NCBI GenBank assembly: GCA_025356475.1
Contig: JANXSX010000174.1
Coordinates: forward strand, 1-49,875
Origin: Isosphaeraceae bacterium
GTDB taxonomy: Bacteria; Planctomycetota; Planctomycetia; Isosphaerales; Isosphaeraceae
DNA length: 49,875 nt
Direction: 5' to 3'
Part shown: one piece after another, positions 21,563-49,875 of the stretch
Position numbering within the stretch: the first letter of the stretch is position 1
Layout: each line of letters opens with the position of its first letter
Position numbers and translations under genes: made by a program
The notes under the pieces: generated by a model
The model's database searches: none
What the model was told of the DNA's origin: nothing
The model's input: only the letters and a program-made list of their open reading frames with translations

Positions 21563-23200
21563 TTAGGGGGCAACCGGCGGTGTCGACCCCGTCATGCCGA
21601 GCTTGACAAGCTCGACATGATCCGACAGATAGGGAAATCTTGCGAATCGATCGACAAACTCGCGTCGGGATCGCAGAGCCTGTTCGGGGAGTCTCGCAGT
21701 CTCGGCGGCGACGATCATTTGCATGGCGTCCTCAGCCTCGCGTCGGCGGCGGGTGACCGCCTGCTCGAGTTCCTCGGCTCGATTTAGAGCTAGCAGTCGC
21801 CAGCCTCGCGCAACCGGCTCAGGCGACTTGGAATACTTCTCCGCCAGGTCACGCCAGTGGATTGCAGAGCCGATTTCATCATTTCTTAACAAATTATCTT
21901 TGATCCGAGCAGTTGTTTCTTTATACGCGCGTTCCAGGTCGGTTCGGGGACTTCCCCCAACGCCACCCGAGTCGAGGTAACCAGAACGTGCCTCGGCATC
22001 CTTGTGATAAATTCGGTCGCGCCAGGTGGTGACCTGTTCCGTGTATGGGTGGTTCGGGTGCTGTGCATCGAGCGGGTCAAGGAACTCTTCTCGGGCTCGG
22101 TTCCAGTCAGCCCTCTGGTCAGAAGCCATCAAGGTCTCAGCATGTGTGTAGAGATAACCTGCGCTTGCCGGCCAGAACTGGTATCCCAAGAAAACGAAGA
22201 TCGCCACGAGTGCGAGGAGAAGAACACCCGTCTCGACTTTATGTCCTTCCAAAGTCTCCAGCCATCCGTAAGCCGCCGACTTTTGTCTCTTCTTCAACTT
22301 GACCTTGGTCCCGATACGAGTGGGGTTGGCGAGTTCCCCATCGGTGGTAGCCCACACCATGGGGATCGGCTCTTTGCGTTCGGCCTTGTCGCGAAGTTCG
22401 CCGAGGATCACGCCGACAGCCGCAGCGTCCCAAGGCCGTTCGCTAGGGGTCTTGGCCAGCAGAGTTGGAACGAGGTCGTTCAGCACGATCGGGATGTCGG
22501 TGATCTTGTCGCTCACGCGAGGTGGAGTTTCGTTCATGTGCGAGTTCATGATCGAAATCGCCGTGTTACCTCGGAATGGGGTCTTACCGGTGAGCATTTC
22601 GAAGAGGACGACGCCAAGTGCATAGAGGTCGATCTTGTGGCTGATCTCGGTCGTGCCTCGGATCTGCTCCGGAGCCATATACGCGGCGGTCCCGATCGTC
22701 TTACCAGGTGCGGTGAGGGCCGTCGCTTCCAGGTCTTTGGCGATCCCGAAGTCCGTAAGCTTCACTCGCCCATCATGGGTGATCATCAAGTTCGACGGTT
22801 TGAGGTCGCGGTGAACGACCCCTCGTTCGTGGGCGTAGTGGAGTGCATCGCAGATCTGGGTCCCGAGTTCGACGACATCACGCCACGGCATAGGCGTGTT
22901 CTCATCGATCAGGCAATCGAGTGTCTTGCCTTTGATGTACTCCATCGCGAAGTACGATCGCCCGTTATAGCGTCCCACCGCGAGGAGGCGGACGATGTTC
23001 GGGTGTCGGAACTGCTGAAGGATCGCCATCTCGCGCTGGAATCGCTCGGAGGCGTTTCCTTTGGCTCCCTGGTCATTGATCATGACCTTTAGCGCGACTT
23101 CACGTCCGGAACCCTCTTGAATTGCGCGATAGACGACTCCCATCGCGCCTGAGCCAAGAATCGCTTCAATCTTATACGAGCCAAGTTTCTCGCCGATCAT
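21563..23200 (-). CDS. Transmembrane Ser/Thr protein kinase (PknB-like)
   Basis: This 545-aa Hanks-type kinase has a complete catalytic domain: glycine loop GSGAMG at 16-21, catalytic Lys K38 in VALKVM, HRD at 130-132 (VVHRDLKPSN), DFG at 150-152 (LTDFGIAKDL) and MAPEQ in the activation segment. A basic linker (KLKKRQK) leads to one membrane helix at about 325-345. The roughly 200-residue extracytoplasmic part has helical, TPR-like character and no PASTA repeats. Planctomycetes carry many such kinases. Substrates are unknown. It may share a transcript with the antitoxin-like gene downstream. Confidence 0.94.
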   Translation of the reverse strand: MIGEKLGSYKIEAILGSGAMGVVYRAIQEGSGREVALKVMINDQGAKGNASERFQREMAILQQFRHPNIVRLLAVGRYNGRSYFAMEYIKGKTLDCLIDENTPMPWRDVVELGTQICDALHYAHERGVVHRDLKPSNLMITHDGRVKLTDFGIAKDLEATALTAPGKTIGTAAYMAPEQIRGTTEISHKIDLYALGVVLFEMLTGKTPFRGNTAISIMNSHMNETPPRVSDKITDIPIVLNDLVPTLLAKTPSERPWDAAAVGVILGELRDKAERKEPIPMVWATTDGELANPTRIGTKVKLKKRQKSAAYGWLETLEGHKVETGVLLLALVAIFVFLGYQFWPASAGYLYTHAETLMASDQRADWNRAREEFLDPLDAQHPNHPYTEQVTTWRDRIYHKDAEARSGYLDSGGVGGSPRTDLERAYKETTARIKDNLLRNDEIGSAIHWRDLAEKYSKSPEPVARGWRLLALNRAEELEQAVTRRRREAEDAMQMIVAAETARLPEQALRSRREFVDRFARFPYLSDHVELVKLGMTGSTPPVAP

Positions 23201-43419: not shown

Positions 43420-43454
43420 AAAACGACACAACCCCCTGTGTAATGAGGGGGTTG
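43420..43454 (-). terminator. Hairpin terminator after the tRNA-Arg 3' fragment
   Basis: On the minus strand CAACCCCCT (43454-43446) pairs with AGGGGGTTG (43437-43429), loop CATTACAC, followed by TGTCGTTTT. It begins 7 bases past the tRNA 3' end and is probably the original terminator of the tRNA-Arg gene. Confidence 0.7.
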
Positions 43455-43739
43455 GCGTCAATGCACCCGATAGGATTCGAACCTATAACCTTCGGTTCCG
43501 TAGGCCGATGTGGGATTGACGGAACGTGCTTAGCCGATAGCGACTTGCGTCGCGAACAGAATCTCGGTTGCAGTCCTGGTTGCAGGGACGGCTGTGCGCC
43601 AAAGGCTCCTAATGGCAGCAGGAGTCAGGACAAGTCCCTTCGAGAAGAACTGGCTCAGCTCGTCGCCATTTGGCCCGAATTGCCCATTCCGGTACGTGAG
43701 GCGATGCTCACTCTCGCCCGAGCGAGTTTGCGGTCCTAA
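43443..43739 (+). pseudogene. Integrase-associated tail-like reading frame at the inferred island edge
   Basis: This 98-codon frame begins in the tRNA complement (HPIGFEPITFG is translated antisense T-loop, a common artefact). It ends REELAQLVAIWPELPIPVREAMLTLARAS. From memory, planctomycete tyrosine-recombinase genes and the small frames after them often end in a very similar W-P-x-L-P-x-x-x-[RK]-x-[AG]-[IM]-x-x-[ML] tail. It is probably a leftover of an integrase module and not a working protein. No integrase core is present in the window. Confidence 0.4.
43462..43509 (-). pseudogene. 3' half of tRNA-Arg(ACG), probable attachment-site copy
   Basis: The minus strand carries a good tRNA 3' half. 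An anticodon arm TCGGC-CTACGGA-ACCGA has anticodon ACG and one C-A mismatch at the stem base next to the loop. It is followed by AAGGTT, a perfect T-arm ATAGG-TTCGAAT-CCTAT, the acceptor strand CGGGTGC and discriminator A. No D-arm or 5' acceptor strand (expected GCACCCG) is found upstream. It is therefore only the half that integrases duplicate on insertion. Confidence 0.8.
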
Positions 43740-43922: not shown

Positions 43923-45158
43923 ATGGATATGAAGTATTACGTCCGGGACTCAAAAGGTCGGGTCGCCGGCCCGTTCAGCGTGGAAGACCTCAAGAAAGCC
44001 GCCCGGGAGGGCAGAATCCAGCCCTCCTGGGAATTAAGCTCAACGCAGCAGAAATGGACACTTGCGGCGAAAGTGCCTGACCTTTTCGATTCTGTTGACA
44101 GCGCACTTGCGGCCGAGGTCTCGCACGTCAACAGGTATCGGGATCTGACAAGGGAGGAACAGGTCGTACTCTTTGTTGATAAGTTCGTTTTCAATAACGA
44201 GCACTTTAAGGACTCGATGCCCTGGCTCCAGAACGCTCGGGCCTGGTGGGCAAAGCTGACGCTCCCGACCAAGGGGTTCGTGATCGCTGAGATCACCCCG
44301 ACCGGCATCAAGCACGTCCGATATGACTTCGAGAACGAGCGGGCTTCGGATGTCCGGCAGGACCAATTCGAGCAGGAACTCAGCGCGGGCATTCGACAAT
44401 CAAACTGGTTTGCCGGCTTCTCAATAGCCGTGGCCTTAGTTTGGGGCGTGTGGACCGTTGTGGATTTCGCGGGTCAGTTCAGCCTGACGTTCGGTACACT
44501 GAAATTCGTTCTTTTCATGATCTTGATAGTGCTGGGTTACATCTACAAAACGAAGCGTACCAAGGTATTCATTGGTTACGTCCTCGCACCAGAGGCTGAG
44601 GCGAAGCTCAATCAGTTGCTGAGCGCGTTCGTAACGCTACGCCGTTGCAGCGGCGTATGGGCCTACGAGGTGCGTGAAAACGTGAACGATAAGCAGTGGA
44701 AATACAATGCGGGAGGGCTCTTTTCGGTCGCCAAGCTGCCCATCGCGATATTTAATCGACCGATGCCCAACATAGAAACCAACATTAATGTTTGCGGTGT
44801 GGCATACCGTCGATTAGCGATCTACTTTCTCCCTGAGAAACTGCTGGTCATCGAGGGGACGGAAATCCGCCACATACCCTATAGCCAGTTGCGAATTACT
44901 CGGACCCACTTGGAATATGTCGAAACACAAGGACACGTATTCTCCGACTCGATGATCATCGAGCATCGCTGGAAGTTTATCAATCGCGACGGATCGCCGG
45001 ACAGGCGGTTCAAGGCGAACGTTCAGGTGCCCGTCGTTCGTTGCGGAATTCTCAATCTCGACGTGTCCGACTTTCCAGTAAGCCTACTGACGACCGATCC
45101 GAATGCACCCGAGTCATTTTGTCAGACCTTGCCGAAGCTTGACAGCATGACTCGCTAA
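43923..45158 (+). CDS. GYF_2-domain membrane protein with a C-terminal PH-like region
   Basis: This 411-aa protein starts at the ATG at 43923 (43929 is possible). Residues 3-55 are a GYF_2/DUF4339 domain (YYVRDSKGRVAGPFSVEDLKKAAREGRIQPSWELSS), a small peptide-binding module. After about 100 residues come two membrane helices (WFAGFSIAVALVWGVWTVVDFA and LKFVLFMILIVLGYIY, about 160-205). The C-terminal domain contains NAGGLFSVAKLPIAIFNRPMPNIETNINV and RLAIYFLPEKLLVIEGTEIRHIPYSQL. From memory this recurs in uncharacterised bacterial proteins and looks like a PH/GRAM-type beta fold. It precedes the TerY-P triad by 115 bp on the same strand and may be its fourth component. Confidence 0.75.
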   Translation: MDMKYYVRDSKGRVAGPFSVEDLKKAAREGRIQPSWELSSTQQKWTLAAKVPDLFDSVDSALAAEVSHVNRYRDLTREEQVVLFVDKFVFNNEHFKDSMPWLQNARAWWAKLTLPTKGFVIAEITPTGIKHVRYDFENERASDVRQDQFEQELSAGIRQSNWFAGFSIAVALVWGVWTVVDFAGQFSLTFGTLKFVLFMILIVLGYIYKTKRTKVFIGYVLAPEAEAKLNQLLSAFVTLRRCSGVWAYEVRENVNDKQWKYNAGGLFSVAKLPIAIFNRPMPNIETNINVCGVAYRRLAIYFLPEKLLVIEGTEIRHIPYSQLRITRTHLEYVETQGHVFSDSMIIEHRWKFINRDGSPDRRFKANVQVPVVRCGILNLDVSDFPVSLLTTDPNAPESFCQTLPKLDSMTR

Positions 45159-45193
45159 GCGACTCTGTAGGCCGTCTCGAACGGAGCAGACCC

Positions 45194-45222
45194 TTGGTTC
45201 CATCACTCGCTTAAGTTATTTT
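45194..45222 (+). promoter_or_regulatory. Candidate promoter ahead of the TerY-P triad
   Basis: TTGGTT (45194-45199), a 17-bp spacer and TATTTT (45217-45222) lie in an AT-rich gap 50 bp before the vWA gene. This would give the triad its own transcript, separate from the GYF gene. Hexamer matches are moderate. Confidence 0.3.
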
Positions 45223-45273
45223 AGATTTCTATATTGATTTCGGTGCGAGGAACCCCGTGCAGGTACTAGCCGT

Positions 45274-46029
45274 ATGAGCGACCAGATCGAATATGCGGGG
45301 TTCGAGGCGAGCGAATTCGCCGACAATCCCGAGCCCCGCGTCCCTTGCCTACTCTTGCTGGATACGTCGGGCTCAATGGCCGAGATAGTCGCCGATGCGG
45401 GTGAGGATACTGGCCAAACTGTGCAGCAAGACGGGCAGACCTATCGGATTGTCTCCGGTGGAACGACGCGAATCGACCTTCTGAATGAAGGCCTTATCAC
45501 GCTTAAACACACGCTCGCCGCCGATACCCTAGCCAGCAAGCGGGCCGAGATCGCCATCGTGACCTTCGGCGGCTCGGTCAACACGGTTCAGGACTTCGTC
45601 ACGGCCGAGCACTTCCAGCCGCCGCAATTGAGGGCCTCGGGCAGCACGCCTATGGGCCAGGCGATCATGCAAGGCCTTGGGATGATCGCCCAACGGAAGG
45701 CCACCTACCGCACCAACGGCATCTCCTATTACCGCCCGTGGGTATTCCTGATTACCGACGGCGGACCGGACCCCGGCGATCCCTGGCAGGCCGCTGCCGT
45801 TCAAGTCAAGCAGGGCGAGGCGGCGAAGTCGTTTGCCTTCTTCACGGTCGGTGTTGAGGGCGCCAATCTCGACGTGCTGGCCCAGATCGCTACGCGGGCA
45901 CCGGTGAAGCTCAAGGGGCTCAACTTCCGCGACATGTTCCTCTGGCTGTCGCAGTCGATGCAGGCGGTCTCCCAGTCCTCTCCCGGCGACAAGGTCGCCC
46001 TCGCGCCCGCCGGTTGGGCCGAAATCTGA
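45274..46029 (+). CDS. TerY/YegL-like von Willebrand factor A protein
   Basis: This 251-aa protein is a single cytoplasmic vWA domain with the MIDAS metal site DTSGS at 30-34 (LLLLDTSGSMAEI), the Thr/Ser loop GSTPMGQAI and the third MIDAS Asp in FLITDGGPDP. The segment KRAEIAIVTFGGSV and the end GLNFRDMFLWLSQSMQAVSQS, whose RDMFLWLSQSM helix is characteristic, place it in the TerY/YegL group. It is the first gene of the TerY-P triad, 12 bp before the PP2C gene. In this system it is expected to scaffold or be regulated by the kinase and phosphatase. Confidence 0.92.
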   Translation: MSDQIEYAGFEASEFADNPEPRVPCLLLLDTSGSMAEIVADAGEDTGQTVQQDGQTYRIVSGGTTRIDLLNEGLITLKHTLAADTLASKRAEIAIVTFGGSVNTVQDFVTAEHFQPPQLRASGSTPMGQAIMQGLGMIAQRKATYRTNGISYYRPWVFLITDGGPDPGDPWQAAAVQVKQGEAAKSFAFFTVGVEGANLDVLAQIATRAPVKLKGLNFRDMFLWLSQSMQAVSQSSPGDKVALAPAGWAEI

Positions 46030-46041
46030 CCGGGGGCCGCC

Positions 46042-46800
46042 ATGTGGAAGATCGTCTTCGGTAGCGTGCAGGGCACGTCCCACGTCCAATCCGGGAAGCC
46101 CTGCCAGGATTTCTGCGATGGGGCCGTCGTCGGCACATCCGCTGTGGCCGTGTGCGCCGACGGAGCGGGTAGTGCCGAGTTGTCGCACCTAGGCTCGAAG
46201 GCGGCGGTCGAGCGCTTTATGGAAGTAGCCACGGTCGAATCCGCCCCGACACGTGAGCAAATTGAATCCTGGGTCGATGCCGCCCGGGCTCGGGTCCTTG
46301 AGGAAGCGGCGGCCAATGAGACGCCGCTGCGGCAGCTCGCCTGCACGCTCCTGGTGGCGATCGTCGGCGAGACCTGGGCCGCCTTCGCCCAGATCGGCGA
46401 CGGGGTAATCGTCTTTGACGGGCCGGAGGGCTATGAGGTCGCCTTCTGGCCGGACAACGGCGAGTACGCCAACACCACGCGCTTCCTGACCGATGAAGCT
46501 TACCGCCAGCACCTGCGGATCGAGATCGTCGAGCGGCAGGTCATAGAGCTTGCCCTCCTCACCGACGGCCTCCAGATGCTCGCCCTCGATTTCGGCCAGG
46601 CCAAGGTTCACGACCGCTTCTTCGCACCGCTGTTTAAGACGGTGCGTAACGGCCCGGACACGGAGCTGCTTCACGCCTCCCTTCTGGAATTCATGGACTC
46701 GAAGCGGGTCAACGACCGCACCGACGACGACAAGACACTCCTCCTCGCTACACGAAACGCCACCGATGTCGCGCCCAGCCTACCCGACCCAACTCCATGA
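46042..46800 (+). CDS. PP2C-type Ser/Thr phosphatase of the TerY-P triad (YegK/PphC-like)
   Basis: This 252-aa metal-dependent phosphatase belongs to the PP2C_2 group. It starts FGSVQGTSHVQSGKPCQDFCD, as in YegK/PphC. Metal-site aspartates are visible in CADGAGS (D40), IGDGVIVF (D120), LLTDG (D175) and RTDDDKTLLLA (228-230). The start is the ATG at 46042 after a GGGGG run. Its last 35 bases overlap the kinase gene, so the two are translationally coupled. It should reverse the phosphorylation done by the neighbouring kinase. Confidence 0.92.
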   Translation: MWKIVFGSVQGTSHVQSGKPCQDFCDGAVVGTSAVAVCADGAGSAELSHLGSKAAVERFMEVATVESAPTREQIESWVDAARARVLEEAAANETPLRQLACTLLVAIVGETWAAFAQIGDGVIVFDGPEGYEVAFWPDNGEYANTTRFLTDEAYRQHLRIEIVERQVIELALLTDGLQMLALDFGQAKVHDRFFAPLFKTVRNGPDTELLHASLLEFMDSKRVNDRTDDDKTLLLATRNATDVAPSLPDPTP

Positions 46801-49711
46801 CCATCTGGGGAACGACGTCCGTCTCTCAGCCAAGCCCTTCGCGGTCGGCGGCGAGGGTGCGGTCTTCGACGTCCTGGGCAAGCCCGACCTTGTTGCGAAG
46901 CTTTACAGCAAGCCGCAGAGCAAGGAACGCTGTGACAAGCTCCGGGCGATGGCCAAGCTGTGCAGCCCCGACCTGCTCAAGATCGCGGCCTGGCCGACGG
47001 CCACGCTGAGCAACGGCAACCCCGCGCTCGTCGAGGGCATCCTGATGCCCAGGATCGTCGACCACAAGGAGATCCACCACCTCTACAGTGTCGCTCAACG
47101 CAAGAAGGACTTCCCCGAAGTTGACTGGGGCTTCCTGCTTCATACCGCGAGGAACTGCGCGATCGCCTTCGAGGCGGTCCACGGTCACGGGCATGTGGTC
47201 GGCGACGTCAACCAAAAAAACGTGATGGTGTCGAAGAAGGGCATCGTCGCCCTGGTCGACTGCGACTCGTTCCAGATCGCGCAAGGCTCGCGCATCTTCC
47301 GCTGCGGGGTGGGCGTGCCCGAATATACTCCGCCCGAGCTGCACGGAAAGAACTTCGGCACGCTGGATCGGACGGCCGACCACGACCTATTCGGCTTGGC
47401 TGTGCTGGTTTTCCACTTGCTAATGATGGGCCGCCATCCGTTCTCGGGGGTCCCGCTGGTCCAGGCCGATATCCCCATCGAGAAGGCCATCCAGAACGGC
47501 CTCTACGCCTACACGCGCAACCCGACCAAGCTCAAGCCGCCGCCGAACGTCCCTCCGGTGACGATGCTCGACGCGGCTACCATCGACCTCTTCGAGCGGG
47601 CGTTCGGCTCGCCGCTACGCCCCACGGCCACCGAATGGCGCAACGCGCTCGACGCGTCGATGAAGCGGCTCAGCCGCTGCAAGAACGACCCCAAGCACTC
47701 ATATCCAGCGGCAGCGGGCAAATGTCCGTGGTGCCAGTTGATCGCGGTCGCGCGGCTGATGTTTTTCCTGCCAGGTCACGGGGCTACGGGCGCGACGTTC
47801 CGGCCGGAGGACATCGACCAGCTCATCCGCAAGCTTGCGGGGATGCAGATCATCGTCTCCGCCTATGTGCAGCCCAAAGCCGTCCTGCCTGTCCAAGTGT
47901 CACTCCCGCCGGGGCTGCGCTCGATCCAAAAGCCAAAGCTCCTGAACCACCCGGCCCCGCCCGCACCGGTGCAGAAGCCGACTTTGGCACCATCTCCCCC
48001 GCCGCCGGTCCTGTTGCCGAGGTCAATGCTCAAGCCGTTGCCGAGTGCGCCGTTGCTGGCCCCGAAGCCGCCGCTTACGCCACATCCAACAGCGCGTCCG
48101 CCGGTACAAAAACCGGCCCTGACGCCTCCGCCGGCCTATCAGCCGCTCCCCAGGCCTCCGCTCAAGCCCCACCCTCTGCCCCCGGTCGTGCCACTTCGCC
48201 CCAGACCTCATCCCGTCCCACTGCCGCCAGTCTATCCGCCGATTCCGACGCCCGGGCCGCCCGACCCGTTCCTGGCGAGGCTCTGCATCGCCGGAATTTT
48301 CGCAGGATTGTTGGTGTTCCTCGTTGCCAGACCGGTGGGCGTGATCGTCATGATCGCGTTCGCCGCATGGTGGGCCATCCTGACAACCACCGAGAACCAG
48401 CGGCGGGAAATGGCCCGCAAGTCACTAAAATCGGCTCACGAGTACGACTGCGAACGCATGGACGAAGAATATGCCGAGCAAATCGAGCCGATCGAAGAGG
48501 CGAATAAACAATTGACAGACGCATGGCAGGCCAGCAAAGCGGCCATGACCGCGAAATACCAGAGACTATGCAAGGGAATCGACGACGAGAATTACCGTCC
48601 GCTCGCAGCATGGGAGGCGGCGGATGCGGTGCGAAAGGCTGAACACGATCGGGCGTCTATGGAAATCAACGCCGCCAATCAACGCCTGATGATGGAATGG
48701 GATGGGGTAGACTCCCTTCGAAGGGCTGAACATCACCGCGTCTGCGAAATCGTGGACGCCAGAAACCGCCAAGTGCTCGAGGAATGGGATGCCAAAAACG
48801 CCGAGACTATGGCAGCGCATGAACGGGTCCGCGATGAGCTCGAACAAGCGAATCGCCGCGTCCTTTCGGCCTGGGAAGGCGAAAACGTCTCCCGCCAGGC
48901 GGCCTATGACAAGGCACGCCTGGAAATCGAGCAGAAAAACCAGCGCCTGACCTCGGCATGGGAAGCGCTGACGGCTTCCCGCCAGGCGGGGCATGACCGT
49001 GGCCGCCGAGACATCGACGCGAAAAACCGCCAACTGGTCGCCGACTGGGAGGCAGCGAACGCGCCCTGGGTCGCCGAGGTGAAGCGCTGGCGCGACCGGG
49101 CGGCAGTGGCCGAGGCCGAAATCAGGCGGTTGGAGACCGAAGTCAACGCCGAGCGTTCGGCGAGTAGGCTACGATTCCAGCAGCGGAAGGACGAGGCCGA
49201 CGGGATCGTTGCGAGCCACAGCCAAGCCAAGCTCGATTACGAGAAGGAGCTTCGCCAGGCTGAGTTGGACTCCAAGAAGATTCAGACGGAGGAGCATCTC
49301 GACAAGTTCTTCATCCGCGATGCAAAGCTCAAGGGCATCACCGGCGACCGCCTCCTCTCACTGGTATCCTTCGGCATCGAGACGGCCAAGGACGTTCAAC
49401 TACTGAGCAACCAAAAGGTGCCCGGGATCGCGAAGGTCCTGACGAGTCGGTTATTCGAGTGGCGGGATAGTCTGGCGTCATCCTTCAGGCCCAAGCAAGG
49501 GCTGCCAGACTCGGAGAAGAGCCGCGTCGCCAGCCGCTACGCGCCGGTCATGCTCCCCCTGGGGCAGTCGATCCAGGGAGCGATCAACGACCTAGACACG
49601 ATCGCCATGTCACATCGCGCCCGCGAGGCGGAAATTATTAACGCCATAGCCGCAACTGTGCAGAACTTCGCTATTGCAGAAGCGCACGTAAATGCGATGA
49701 AGGTGGCATAG
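46766..49711 (+). CDS. Membrane-anchored YegI-like protein kinase with zinc-ribbon, proline-rich, tandem-repeat and HhH regions
   Basis: This 981-aa third member of the TerY-P triad starts at the ATG at 46766, overlapping the phosphatase gene by 35 bp. The kinase domain (about 15-300) has a glycine loop GGEGAVFDV near 28, Lys45, a divergent catalytic loop GDVNQKN (D147, N152) in place of HRD, and LVDCDSF (D165) in place of DFG. A C-x5-H-x8-C-x2-C cluster follows (C305, H311, C320, C323). A proline-rich linker spans 380-500. Hydrophobic residues 507-540, interrupted by R522-P523, may form a membrane hairpin. Seven 29-residue repeats occupy 580-782 and a coiled coil follows. A helix-hairpin-helix region lies near 850-905 (LKGITGDRLLSLVSFGIETAKDVQ). 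E. coli YegI is about 650 aa (from memory) with the same order but lacks this length of linker and repeats. Confidence 0.9.
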   Translation: MSRPAYPTQLHDHLGNDVRLSAKPFAVGGEGAVFDVLGKPDLVAKLYSKPQSKERCDKLRAMAKLCSPDLLKIAAWPTATLSNGNPALVEGILMPRIVDHKEIHHLYSVAQRKKDFPEVDWGFLLHTARNCAIAFEAVHGHGHVVGDVNQKNVMVSKKGIVALVDCDSFQIAQGSRIFRCGVGVPEYTPPELHGKNFGTLDRTADHDLFGLAVLVFHLLMMGRHPFSGVPLVQADIPIEKAIQNGLYAYTRNPTKLKPPPNVPPVTMLDAATIDLFERAFGSPLRPTATEWRNALDASMKRLSRCKNDPKHSYPAAAGKCPWCQLIAVARLMFFLPGHGATGATFRPEDIDQLIRKLAGMQIIVSAYVQPKAVLPVQVSLPPGLRSIQKPKLLNHPAPPAPVQKPTLAPSPPPPVLLPRSMLKPLPSAPLLAPKPPLTPHPTARPPVQKPALTPPPAYQPLPRPPLKPHPLPPVVPLRPRPHPVPLPPVYPPIPTPGPPDPFLARLCIAGIFAGLLVFLVARPVGVIVMIAFAAWWAILTTTENQRREMARKSLKSAHEYDCERMDEEYAEQIEPIEEANKQLTDAWQASKAAMTAKYQRLCKGIDDENYRPLAAWEAADAVRKAEHDRASMEINAANQRLMMEWDGVDSLRRAEHHRVCEIVDARNRQVLEEWDAKNAETMAAHERVRDELEQANRRVLSAWEGENVSRQAAYDKARLEIEQKNQRLTSAWEALTASRQAGHDRGRRDIDAKNRQLVADWEAANAPWVAEVKRWRDRAAVAEAEIRRLETEVNAERSASRLRFQQRKDEADGIVASHSQAKLDYEKELRQAELDSKKIQTEEHLDKFFIRDAKLKGITGDRLLSLVSFGIETAKDVQLLSNQKVPGIAKVLTSRLFEWRDSLASSFRPKQGLPDSEKSRVASRYAPVMLPLGQSIQGAINDLDTIAMSHRAREAEIINAIAATVQNFAIAEAHVNAMKVA
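48503..49111 (+). repeat. Seven tandem 87-bp (29-residue) repeats in the kinase gene
   Basis: Units start at 48503, 48590, 48677, 48764, 48851, 48938 and 49025. Each encodes exactly 29 residues starting with Asn, with Trp at position 8 followed by E/D/Q, Ala near 17, a basic residue near 21, and an acidic/aliphatic end. DNA identity between units is modest, so the repeats are old or diversified while length and key residues are fixed. They fall between the membrane segment and the HhH region. Confidence 0.9.
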
Positions 49712-49875
49712 TCTCGGGGAGGGTTGGGGCGTAATCTAGATGTCCGTTTCGTAAATTCCTAGCCAGTTTTCTTGACCGCACGGTTGTACGGTCTCGCCGG
49801 ATAGAGTTCTCGCTCAAAACGCATCGGTCGTGGGCTGAACCACGCACGTCCTTTGCGTTGTTGGCGGCGAGTCTG

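What the first reader, a model, noticed from the sequence alone, without database searches (positions are those of the whole stretch)
43923..49711. Four-gene TerY-P (YegL-YegK-YegI) signalling module with an added GYF/PH-like membrane protein on an inferred island
The sequence shows a vWA protein, a PP2C phosphatase and a YegI-like kinase in a 12-bp/overlap arrangement. This is the TerY-P triad known from comparative genomics and the E. coli yegL-yegK-yegI genes. Upstream, same strand, is a GYF_2 plus two-helix plus PH-like protein not part of the classical triad. All are to the right of a tRNA half-site. The combination (peptide-binding sensor, metal-site scaffold, kinase/phosphatase pair, HhH nucleic-acid module) fits a stress or phage response system. 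The defence role is inference.
Basis: partly seen in the sequence, partly recalled or inferred. Interest (0 to 1): 0.8.

Follow-up and report, generated by a model that had tools for sequence, protein, structure and literature searches.

The report
YegI-type kinase triad with GYF partner
A mobile DNA island in a planctomycete bacterium carries a known three-gene protein-phosphorylation switch (relatives of E. coli YegL, YegK and YegI) plus an unusual fourth membrane protein with a GYF domain, which may plug into the kinase; the switch is known, the partner is not.

Summary
In detail: GYF protein (43923-45158), vWA (45274-46029), PP2C (46042-46800) and YegI-like kinase (46766-49711), all on the + strand. 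The triad is homologous to E. coli YegL (50%), PphC/YegK (35%) and YegI (43% over the kinase domain, plus the HhH region). The island is real: 51 bp at 43460-43510 repeat, with one mismatch, the 3' part of an intact tRNA-Arg(ACG) on contig C19, beside a truncated tyrosine recombinase. The GYF gene is a rare accessory: full-length in 3 of 45 family genomes, each time next to the triad, while 4 of the 7 genomes with a close kinase lack it. Two of those four carry a TM/TerB-like/HNH protein in the same slot. The close planctomycete kinases have a very proline-rich linker (35-47% Pro per 60 aa; at most 28% in the 73 other loci measured). I propose that the GYF domain docks there. The PH-like fold is not supported. 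A defence role is plausible, since TerY-P triads are antiphage in print, but it is unproven here: the E. coli triad is core (5342 of 5426 genomes). New variant of a known kind.

The parts
43429..43454 (-). terminator-like hairpin directly downstream of the tRNA-Arg 3' fragment; probably the original terminator of the tRNA gene, left outside the island
   Evidence: consensus match only; 6 terminator-like sites found in the region against 5.8 in shuffles; position relative to the tRNA fragment is by reading
43460..43510 (-). left attachment site: 51-bp duplicate of the 3' part of tRNA-Arg(ACG) (the outermost base lies just outside the tRNA)
   Evidence: 50 of 51 identical to C19:792-842, where the tRNA is intact at 793-868
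43923..45158 (+). GYF protein, 411 aa: GYF_2 (aa 5-54), two hydrophobic segments (aa 162-210), C-terminal domain with the 'W-x-x-x-N-x-x-G-x-P-D-R-R-F' motif
43935..44084 (+). GYF_2 domain; the only GYF_2 match (E 0.001 or better) in the held genome
44565..45122 (+). C-terminal domain shared with DUF4236- or TerB-bearing membrane proteins; fold unknown
45274..46029 (+). vWA protein, YegL/TerY-like, 251 aa, MIDAS-type residues present
   Evidence: PADLOC TerY, weak, 0.0026; 50% to YegL
46042..46800 (+). PP2C phosphatase, YegK/PphC-like, 252 aa
   Evidence: (35% to PphC)
46766..49711 (+). YegI-like kinase, 981 aa: kinase domain, C-x5-H..CPWC motif, Pro-rich linker, 43-aa hydrophobic stretch, coiled coil, HhH-type tip
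47678..47734 (+). zinc-ribbon-like motif (C305, H311, C320, C323), invariant in the 10 aligned kinases
47861..48280 (+). proline-rich linker with one PPGLRS, the proposed GYF docking site
48992..49711 (+). antiparallel coiled-coil hairpin with a helical HhH-type tip (about 49343-49480)
   Evidence: mean pLDDT 95

Best explanation
This is a YegL-YegK-YegI type TerY-P triad: a membrane-anchored Ser/Thr kinase, a PP2C phosphatase that resets it, and a vWA adaptor. It was brought into this Isosphaeraceae genome by a tRNA-Arg-integrating element and carries an optional, triad-linked membrane accessory. Most likely working: the kinase sits on the inner face of the membrane through its hydrophobic stretch; its coiled-coil/HhH arm reads a nucleic-acid or stress state; the PP2C removes the phosphates; the vWA protein scaffolds. 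The GYF protein, also membrane-bound, docks through its GYF domain on the kinase's long proline-rich linker, placing its C-terminal domain next to the kinase as a sensor or substrate. Shown: genes, homology, motifs, island edge, patchy distribution, linkage of GYF to the triad, the Pro-rich linker of the close kinases, and (in E. coli, in print) YegI autophosphorylation and PphC dephosphorylating it. Inferred: GYF-linker docking, sensing by HhH, membrane topology, biological output (stress or phage response).
For: Homology to YegL/PphC/YegI. All three triad genes found in 72 of 80 named loci, adjacent (gaps under 500 bp) in 70. tRNA-Arg duplication and recombinase remnant. Close triads lie in different flanks: among 11 loci only a DUF1501-like and ABC-like matches were shared (names by reading). 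GYF_2 occurs once in this genome and sits 115 bp from the triad; the full-length GYF protein is next to the triad in all three family genomes that have it. Close planctomycete kinases: 35-47% Pro linkers in 7 of 7 measured loci and the window, against 28% or less in the other 73 loci and 15% in YegI. Another kinase of that group, Schlesneria L091, has a different two-GYF protein about 1 kb downstream. YegI membrane kinase and PphC action are cited in PMC13232886 (passages).
Against: Four of seven genomes with the close kinase lack the GYF gene, including the nearest by kinase and vWA (G017; 82% and 88%), where 5.8 kb upstream of the vWA gene are sequenced and hold no GYF gene. The Pro-rich linker is also present where GYF is absent, and the PPG-hydrophobic motif is in the window's kinase but not in the two other GYF-bearing genomes. 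The GYF gene's G+C (0.536) differs from the triad's (0.63-0.64), although it is 0.60 in the relatives. GYF adjacency against Pro-rich linker was not significant at the threshold first set (2 of 13 against 1 of 67 loci, p = 0.067). The grouping of the close kinases was tested against two outgroup kinases only.
Confidence: 0.5

Rival explanations
1. Antiphage TerY-P system: the module senses infection and the kinase triggers an arrest or a nuclease; the accessory slot (GYF protein here, TerB-like/HNH protein in two relatives) holds the effector.
For: TerY-P is reported as an antiphage system against T7-like phages (PMC7699616, passage), and a TerY-P protected P. aeruginosa (PMC10889362, passages). 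Two relatives carry a TM/TerB-like/HNH protein in the slot (HNH E 9e-13 and 4e-12). One close locus (Pirellula L092) lies next to Type I methyltransferase and specificity genes. The triad lies on an island here.
Against: The antiphage form cited in PMC11090510 has an OB-fold kinase; this one has a zinc-ribbon/HhH tail and matches PADLOC STK_OB only at 0.012. The E. coli homologue is core, 5342 of 5426 genomes. Around 8 close loci clear defence neighbours are few, and no matched control was run.
Confidence: 0.35
2. General envelope or DNA-damage stress switch, not aimed at phages; it is cargo by chance.
For: The YegLKI triad is core in E. coli, with reported kinase and phosphatase activities but no condition known that induces it (PMC13232886). 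A Pseudomonas plasmid triad starts 1.3 kb after an S24 peptidase/Y-family polymerase pair.
Against: In Isosphaeraceae the close type is patchy (7 of 45 genomes) and its loci share no specific flanks, unlike a housekeeping switch.
Confidence: 0.4
3. The GYF gene is an unrelated passenger of the island that happens to sit upstream of the triad.
For: 115-bp gap, different G+C, absent beside most triads.
Against: Adjacency kept in three genera with different flanks; single GYF_2 copy in this genome; 82% identical between this genome and Singulisphaera, against 79% for PP2C and 74% for vWA, the latter lowered by a gap of about 27 residues.
Confidence: 0.2

Closest known systems
E. coli yegL-pphC(yegK)-yegI
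   Same: Same three families in the same order; kinase with CPWC motif and C-terminal HhH region
   Different: Kinase 981 aa instead of 648, with a 140-aa Pro-rich linker; on an island instead of core; extra GYF gene upstream; nothing between PP2C and kinase, where K-12 has yegJ
TerY-P triad (Anantharaman et al. 2012; OB-fold form of Gao et al. 2020), both known to me only through PMC11090510 and PMC7699616
   Same: vWA + PP2C + kinase with zinc ribbon; linked to mobile and DNA-processing genes
   Different: No OB-fold match of weight; HhH/coiled-coil tail; no GYF accessory in the passages read
Planctomycete conflict systems with GYF pairs (PMC7159879)
   Same: GYF-domain protein with TM region next to signalling genes; kinase-PP2C-vWA genes are also described there, in actinobacteria (passages)
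   Different: There the GYF pairs go with GAP1-N2 GTPase systems and trypsin or TM-rich regions; here a single GYF beside a YegI-type triad
Membrane proteins with DUF4236 (L031, L089) or TerB (L087; weak in L034)
   Same: Share the C-terminal 'NxxGxPDRRF' domain of the GYF protein
   Different: No GYF domain; no triad gene found in the stretches fetched

Membership tests
TerY-P triad | adjacent vWA, PP2C and Ser/Thr kinase genes | tested here: met
TerY-P triad | vWA with MIDAS residues | tested here: met
   (DTSGS, STP, ITDG; motif also given in PMC11090510)
TerY-P triad | kinase fused to a zinc ribbon or OB-fold | tested here: met
   zinc-ribbon-like C-x5-H-x8-CPWC, invariant in 10 aligned kinases; metal binding itself not testable
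Antiphage TerY-P (PADLOC/Gao type) | kinase with C-terminal OB-fold (STK_OB) | tested here: not met
   PADLOC STK_OB E 0.012, on the kinase part only; the modelled tail is coiled coil with an HhH-type tip
Antiphage TerY-P (PADLOC/Gao type) | protection against phage | not testable with these tools
   needs a plaque assay
YegLKI type | homology of all three proteins to E. coli YegL, PphC, YegI | tested here: met
   50%, 35%, 43%; E 3e-75, 4e-39, 1e-78
YegLKI type | HhH region and TM segments in the kinase | tested here: met
   C-terminal alignment to YegI; HHH_5 in 6 of 37 tails, best 6.7e-06, none in the window's own tail; helical tip in the model; hydrophobic 500-542
GYF_2 domain | Pfam GYF_2 profile match | tested here: met
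   E 1e-05, 25.7 bits against 25.8 (just under); 29.6 bits, over the cut-off, in the genome search
PH-like domain | PH fold of the C-terminal domain | tested here: inconclusive
   no profile or PDB sequence hit; model unusable, pLDDT 37
tRNA-integrated genomic island | duplicated tRNA 3' end, integrase next to the tRNA | tested here: met
   the recombinase is a C-terminal remnant with stops in frame before it, and the stretch between the two contigs is not assembled

The most novel reading that the evidence does not exclude
A distinct planctomycete branch of the YegI-type triad has turned its kinase linker into a long proline-rich docking strip and uses an exchangeable membrane partner slot: a GYF-TM protein in some genomes (GYF binds the strip), a TM-TerB-like-HNH protein in others. 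The two partners do not resemble each other directly, but each matches a different part of one bridging protein family ('NxxGxPDRRF' domain followed by a TerB-like region), so the slot would be filled from one modular Ter-linked membrane family. This would make the triad a swappable-output phospho-switch.
Probability: 0.3. Interest if true: 0.62.

Novelty: new variant of a known kind. Interest (0 to 1): 0.42.

Why it matters
The YegI/YegK/YegL switch is nearly universal in E. coli, yet its trigger and output are not known to me from the passages read. A natural version with a dedicated membrane partner, and a concrete docking hypothesis (GYF domain on a proline-rich linker), gives a testable handle on how this widespread kinase is wired. 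The slot-swapping between a GYF protein and a TerB-like/HNH protein would link the switch to the Ter stress/defence repertoire.

Tried and rejected
PH-like fold of the GYF protein: AlphaFold on two sequences gave pLDDT 37; A3 as a profile had no PDB hit; searches of viral contigs for more relatives found none (with the GYF protein; with three other members of the C-terminal family). The fold stays open.

Empty-site test: the C19 gene next to the intact tRNA was sought in 45 family genomes; it belongs to a large family, and no tRNA was found in the fetched stretches of the 19 relatives scanned. The empty site was not shown.

Remnant ORF between the attachment site and the GYF gene (43443-43739): no convincing relative in the genome beyond the shared tRNA stretch.

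GYF adjacency elsewhere: a GYF-domain model found 3 ORFs in 82 loci: L090 (the same gene), L091 (two GYF, about 1 kb downstream) and L166, which by reading is a GspE-like ATPase and probably incidental. GYF_2 occurs in 52 of 119 phylum genomes, so L091 is suggestive, not proof.

Defence neighbours: 72 ORFs around 8 close loci and 41 ORFs from window and C19 as a control were scanned with PADLOC. Traced to a locus: Type I RM genes and a Cas4-like nuclease in L092, a helicase-like gene in L097, a PDC-M63A match in L094. A PD-Lambda-1 match (6.2e-103) among the 72 was not traced. The control also gave 50 families, many of them generic kinases. No enrichment is claimed. A conjugative coupling protein lies near the G436 kinase (L077).

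Fold search of the HhH tail: the 50 matches shown are mostly coiled-coil structures, best E 0.031, none at 0.001 or below; the HhH assignment rests on homology.

G439 holds only remnants: a GYF fragment and kinase fragments 3.3 Mb apart.

Limits: at most 18 first-look candidates per genome were scored, so absence of a kinase is not absolute.

Full report
Check of the observation. The four genes are there, intact, on the + strand: GYF protein 43923-45158, vWA 45274-46029, PP2C 46042-46800, kinase 46766-49711. Gaps are 115 bp and 12 bp, then a 35-bp overlap. The expected metal and catalytic residues are present in vWA, PP2C and kinase (motif meanings recalled). The window is one whole contig (C215) of a 5.9-Mb genome in 232 contigs.

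Island. Bases 43460-43510 match 50 of 51 bases of C19:792-842, the 3' part of tRNA-Arg(ACG), which is intact there at 793-868 on the minus strand. Identity stops at both ends of the 51 bp. Left of the intact tRNA on C19 lies a tyrosine-recombinase C-terminal half (Phage_integrase 4.4e-10, profile 82-168 of 172) with stop codons in frame before it. A terminator-like hairpin sits just outside the copy in the window. This is the pattern of an element that integrated into the tRNA 3' end: copy at the left, restored tRNA at the right. The element seems decayed, and what lies between window position 49875 and C19:1 is unassembled.

Triad identity. Pairwise BLASTP to E. coli K-12: vWA/YegL 50%, PP2C/PphC 35%, kinase/YegI 43% over 328 aa plus a second alignment over the HhH region. 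A zinc-ribbon-like C-x5-H-x8-CPWC motif follows the kinase domain. The last 239 aa, modelled with 37 sequences, give mean pLDDT 95: a long antiparallel coiled coil with a small helical tip. HHH_5 is matched by 6 of 37 tails (best 6.7e-06), not by the window's own. PDB fold search gave no match at E 0.001 or below.

Distribution. With a kinase profile, 80 named loci were kept of 360 confirmed; 72 of the 80 have all three genes detected, 70 of them with gaps under 500 bp; most of the other 8 are near contig ends. In the family, a kinase relative occurs in 13 of 45 genomes: seven with the close type (G000, G008, G006, G017, G428, G429 with two in tandem, G436), one with remnants (G439) and five more distant (39-42% identity). 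The flanks of 11 close loci (some short) shared only a DUF1501-like and ABC-like pairs (names by reading). In E. coli, by contrast, yegL-pphC-yegI is core: 5342 of 5426 genomes at 80% coverage or more. Kinase relatives were found in 47 of 72,556 plasmid records at 1e-20 (some records are chromosome-sized), 1 of 50,697 phage records and 2 viral contigs; for these only the kinase was the query.

GYF protein. It is the only GYF_2 match in this genome. Full-length relatives: G008 82%, G006 49%; a fragment in G439. All three full-length genes are directly upstream of a triad's vWA gene; in G006 vWA and the start of PP2C are on that contig and the kinase on another. In an even draw of 392 phylum genomes no further full-length relative was found, only C-terminal matches in three genomes at 1e-8. 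Four of the seven close triads lack it: G017 and G428 (both about 77% complete), G429 and G436 (99%). At G017 and G436, 5.9 and 8.4 kb upstream of vWA are sequenced and hold no GYF gene. So GYF implies the triad, but the triad does not imply GYF. G+C is 0.536 against 0.63-0.64 for the triad.

What sits in the slot instead. In G428 and G429 the gene upstream of vWA encodes an N-terminal hydrophobic segment (by reading), a repeat region and an HNH nuclease domain (9.2e-13 and 4.1e-12). The repeat region matches Pfam Tic110 (1.2e-08 and 4.3e-10) better than TerB (3.9e-06 and 1.3e-05), so I call it TerB-like. This protein has no direct similarity to the GYF protein. But both match different parts of the same ORFs. 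L034 (G008, a second locus) and L089 (G431) match the GYF protein's C-terminal domain and, further along the same ORF, the TerB-like region of the HNH protein (coordinates for L034). Against a strict slot: two further long HNH-type matches (G432, G425) have no triad gene in the stretches fetched, and no kinase was found in those genomes (with at most 18 candidates scored per genome).

A proline-rich kinase group. Over 80 loci that could be measured (of 82), plus window, G006, G008 and E. coli YegI, the highest proline fraction in any 60-aa window after the CPWC motif is 0.35-0.47 in seven close planctomycete loci and 0.47 in the window, 0.28 or less in the 73 others, and 0.15 in YegI. L097 (G436) is cut in the kinase and was not measurable. 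In kinase and vWA trees these proteins stand apart from two more distant planctomycete triads (100/100); that is only two outgroup rows, and the inner order is poorly resolved. The group includes Isosphaeraceae and one Pirellula and one Schlesneria MAG. The Schlesneria member (L091) has a different protein with two GYF domains about 1 kb downstream. GYF domains are known as binders of proline-rich peptides (recalled). The window's linker holds one PPGLRS, but the kinases of G008 and G006 have no such motif. At the threshold first set (0.25) the association of GYF adjacency with a Pro-rich linker is 2 of 13 against 1 of 67 loci, Fisher p = 0.067; at the natural gap (chosen afterwards) it is 2 of 7 against 1 of 73, and one of those two is the GYF gene itself. 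It is a lead, not proof.

Mechanism. Committed reading: a membrane phospho-switch. The kinase is anchored by a hydrophobic stretch; its HhH/coiled-coil arm is the likely nucleic-acid-side sensor; PP2C resets; vWA scaffolds; the GYF protein, also membrane-bound, docks on the Pro-rich linker. In E. coli, YegI is a membrane Ser/Thr kinase that autophosphorylates, and PphC dephosphorylates it (as cited in PMC13232886, passages; the original papers were not held). Output: stress or anti-phage, undecided. For defence: TerY-P reported antiphage (PMC7699616 passage; PMC10889362 passages; PMC11090510 passages), the island, HNH in the slot of two relatives, Type I RM genes beside L092. Against: a different kinase tail from the OB-fold type, and core status in E. 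coli.

Known or new. The triad and its presence on islands are known (PMC4978471 passages describe a TerY-P island in H. pylori). Planctomycete GYF proteins beside conflict systems are known (PMC7159879 passages). In eight searches no listing showed a paper that puts a GYF protein with a TerY-P/YegI triad; the library is partial and I read passages of six papers only. Hence: new variant of a known kind.

Noticed in passing
24 of the 82 triad loci, e.g. L099:12014-12619, L103:12022-12624: A small gene that reads like a TetR-family regulator (by eye, no profile run) lies just downstream of the kinase in 24 loci; 18 of the 24 are named Competibacteraceae, Competibacter or Contendobacter: another lineage-specific fourth gene.
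   Followed up: partly
L075:7284-13146 (G429): Two YegI-like kinases in tandem behind one vWA and one PP2C gene.
   Followed up: no
L084:3600-5612 (G002): A distant kinase of the triad type whose C-terminus reads like a formylglycine-generating-enzyme (FGE-sulfatase) domain (by eye).
   Followed up: no
L034:10261-11442, L089:7394-9208, L031:74-1711, L087:8432-9937: Membrane proteins with a 'TWxFxNKxGxPDRRF' domain combined with DUF4236 (L031, L089) or TerB (L087; weak in L034); fold and function unknown.
   Followed up: partly
window 45274-46029; L028, L074, L075, L076, L078: The vWA proteins of the window, G017 and G006 (250-253 aa) have about 27 extra residues right after the DxSGS motif that G008, G428, G429, G436 (222-224 aa) and E. 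coli YegL lack; not correlated with GYF.
   Followed up: no
L092 and L115: One Pirellula MAG (PNKZ01) carries two different triads, one of the Pro-rich group and one distant.
   Followed up: no
L207:3667-11805 (G425): A TerB-like/HNH protein without a triad sits near genes that read like DUF4062 and an AAA/OLD-like pair (by eye), perhaps another defence neighbourhood.
   Followed up: no
L209:3614-9944: On Pseudomonas fulva plasmid pVIM-24-ZDHY316 a vWA-PP2C-kinase triad starts 1.3 kb after an S24 peptidase and Y-family polymerase pair.
   Followed up: no
window 21563-23200 (-): A Hanks-type kinase gene by reading, elsewhere in the contig; probably what matches PD-T4-6 models in the control scan.
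   Followed up: no
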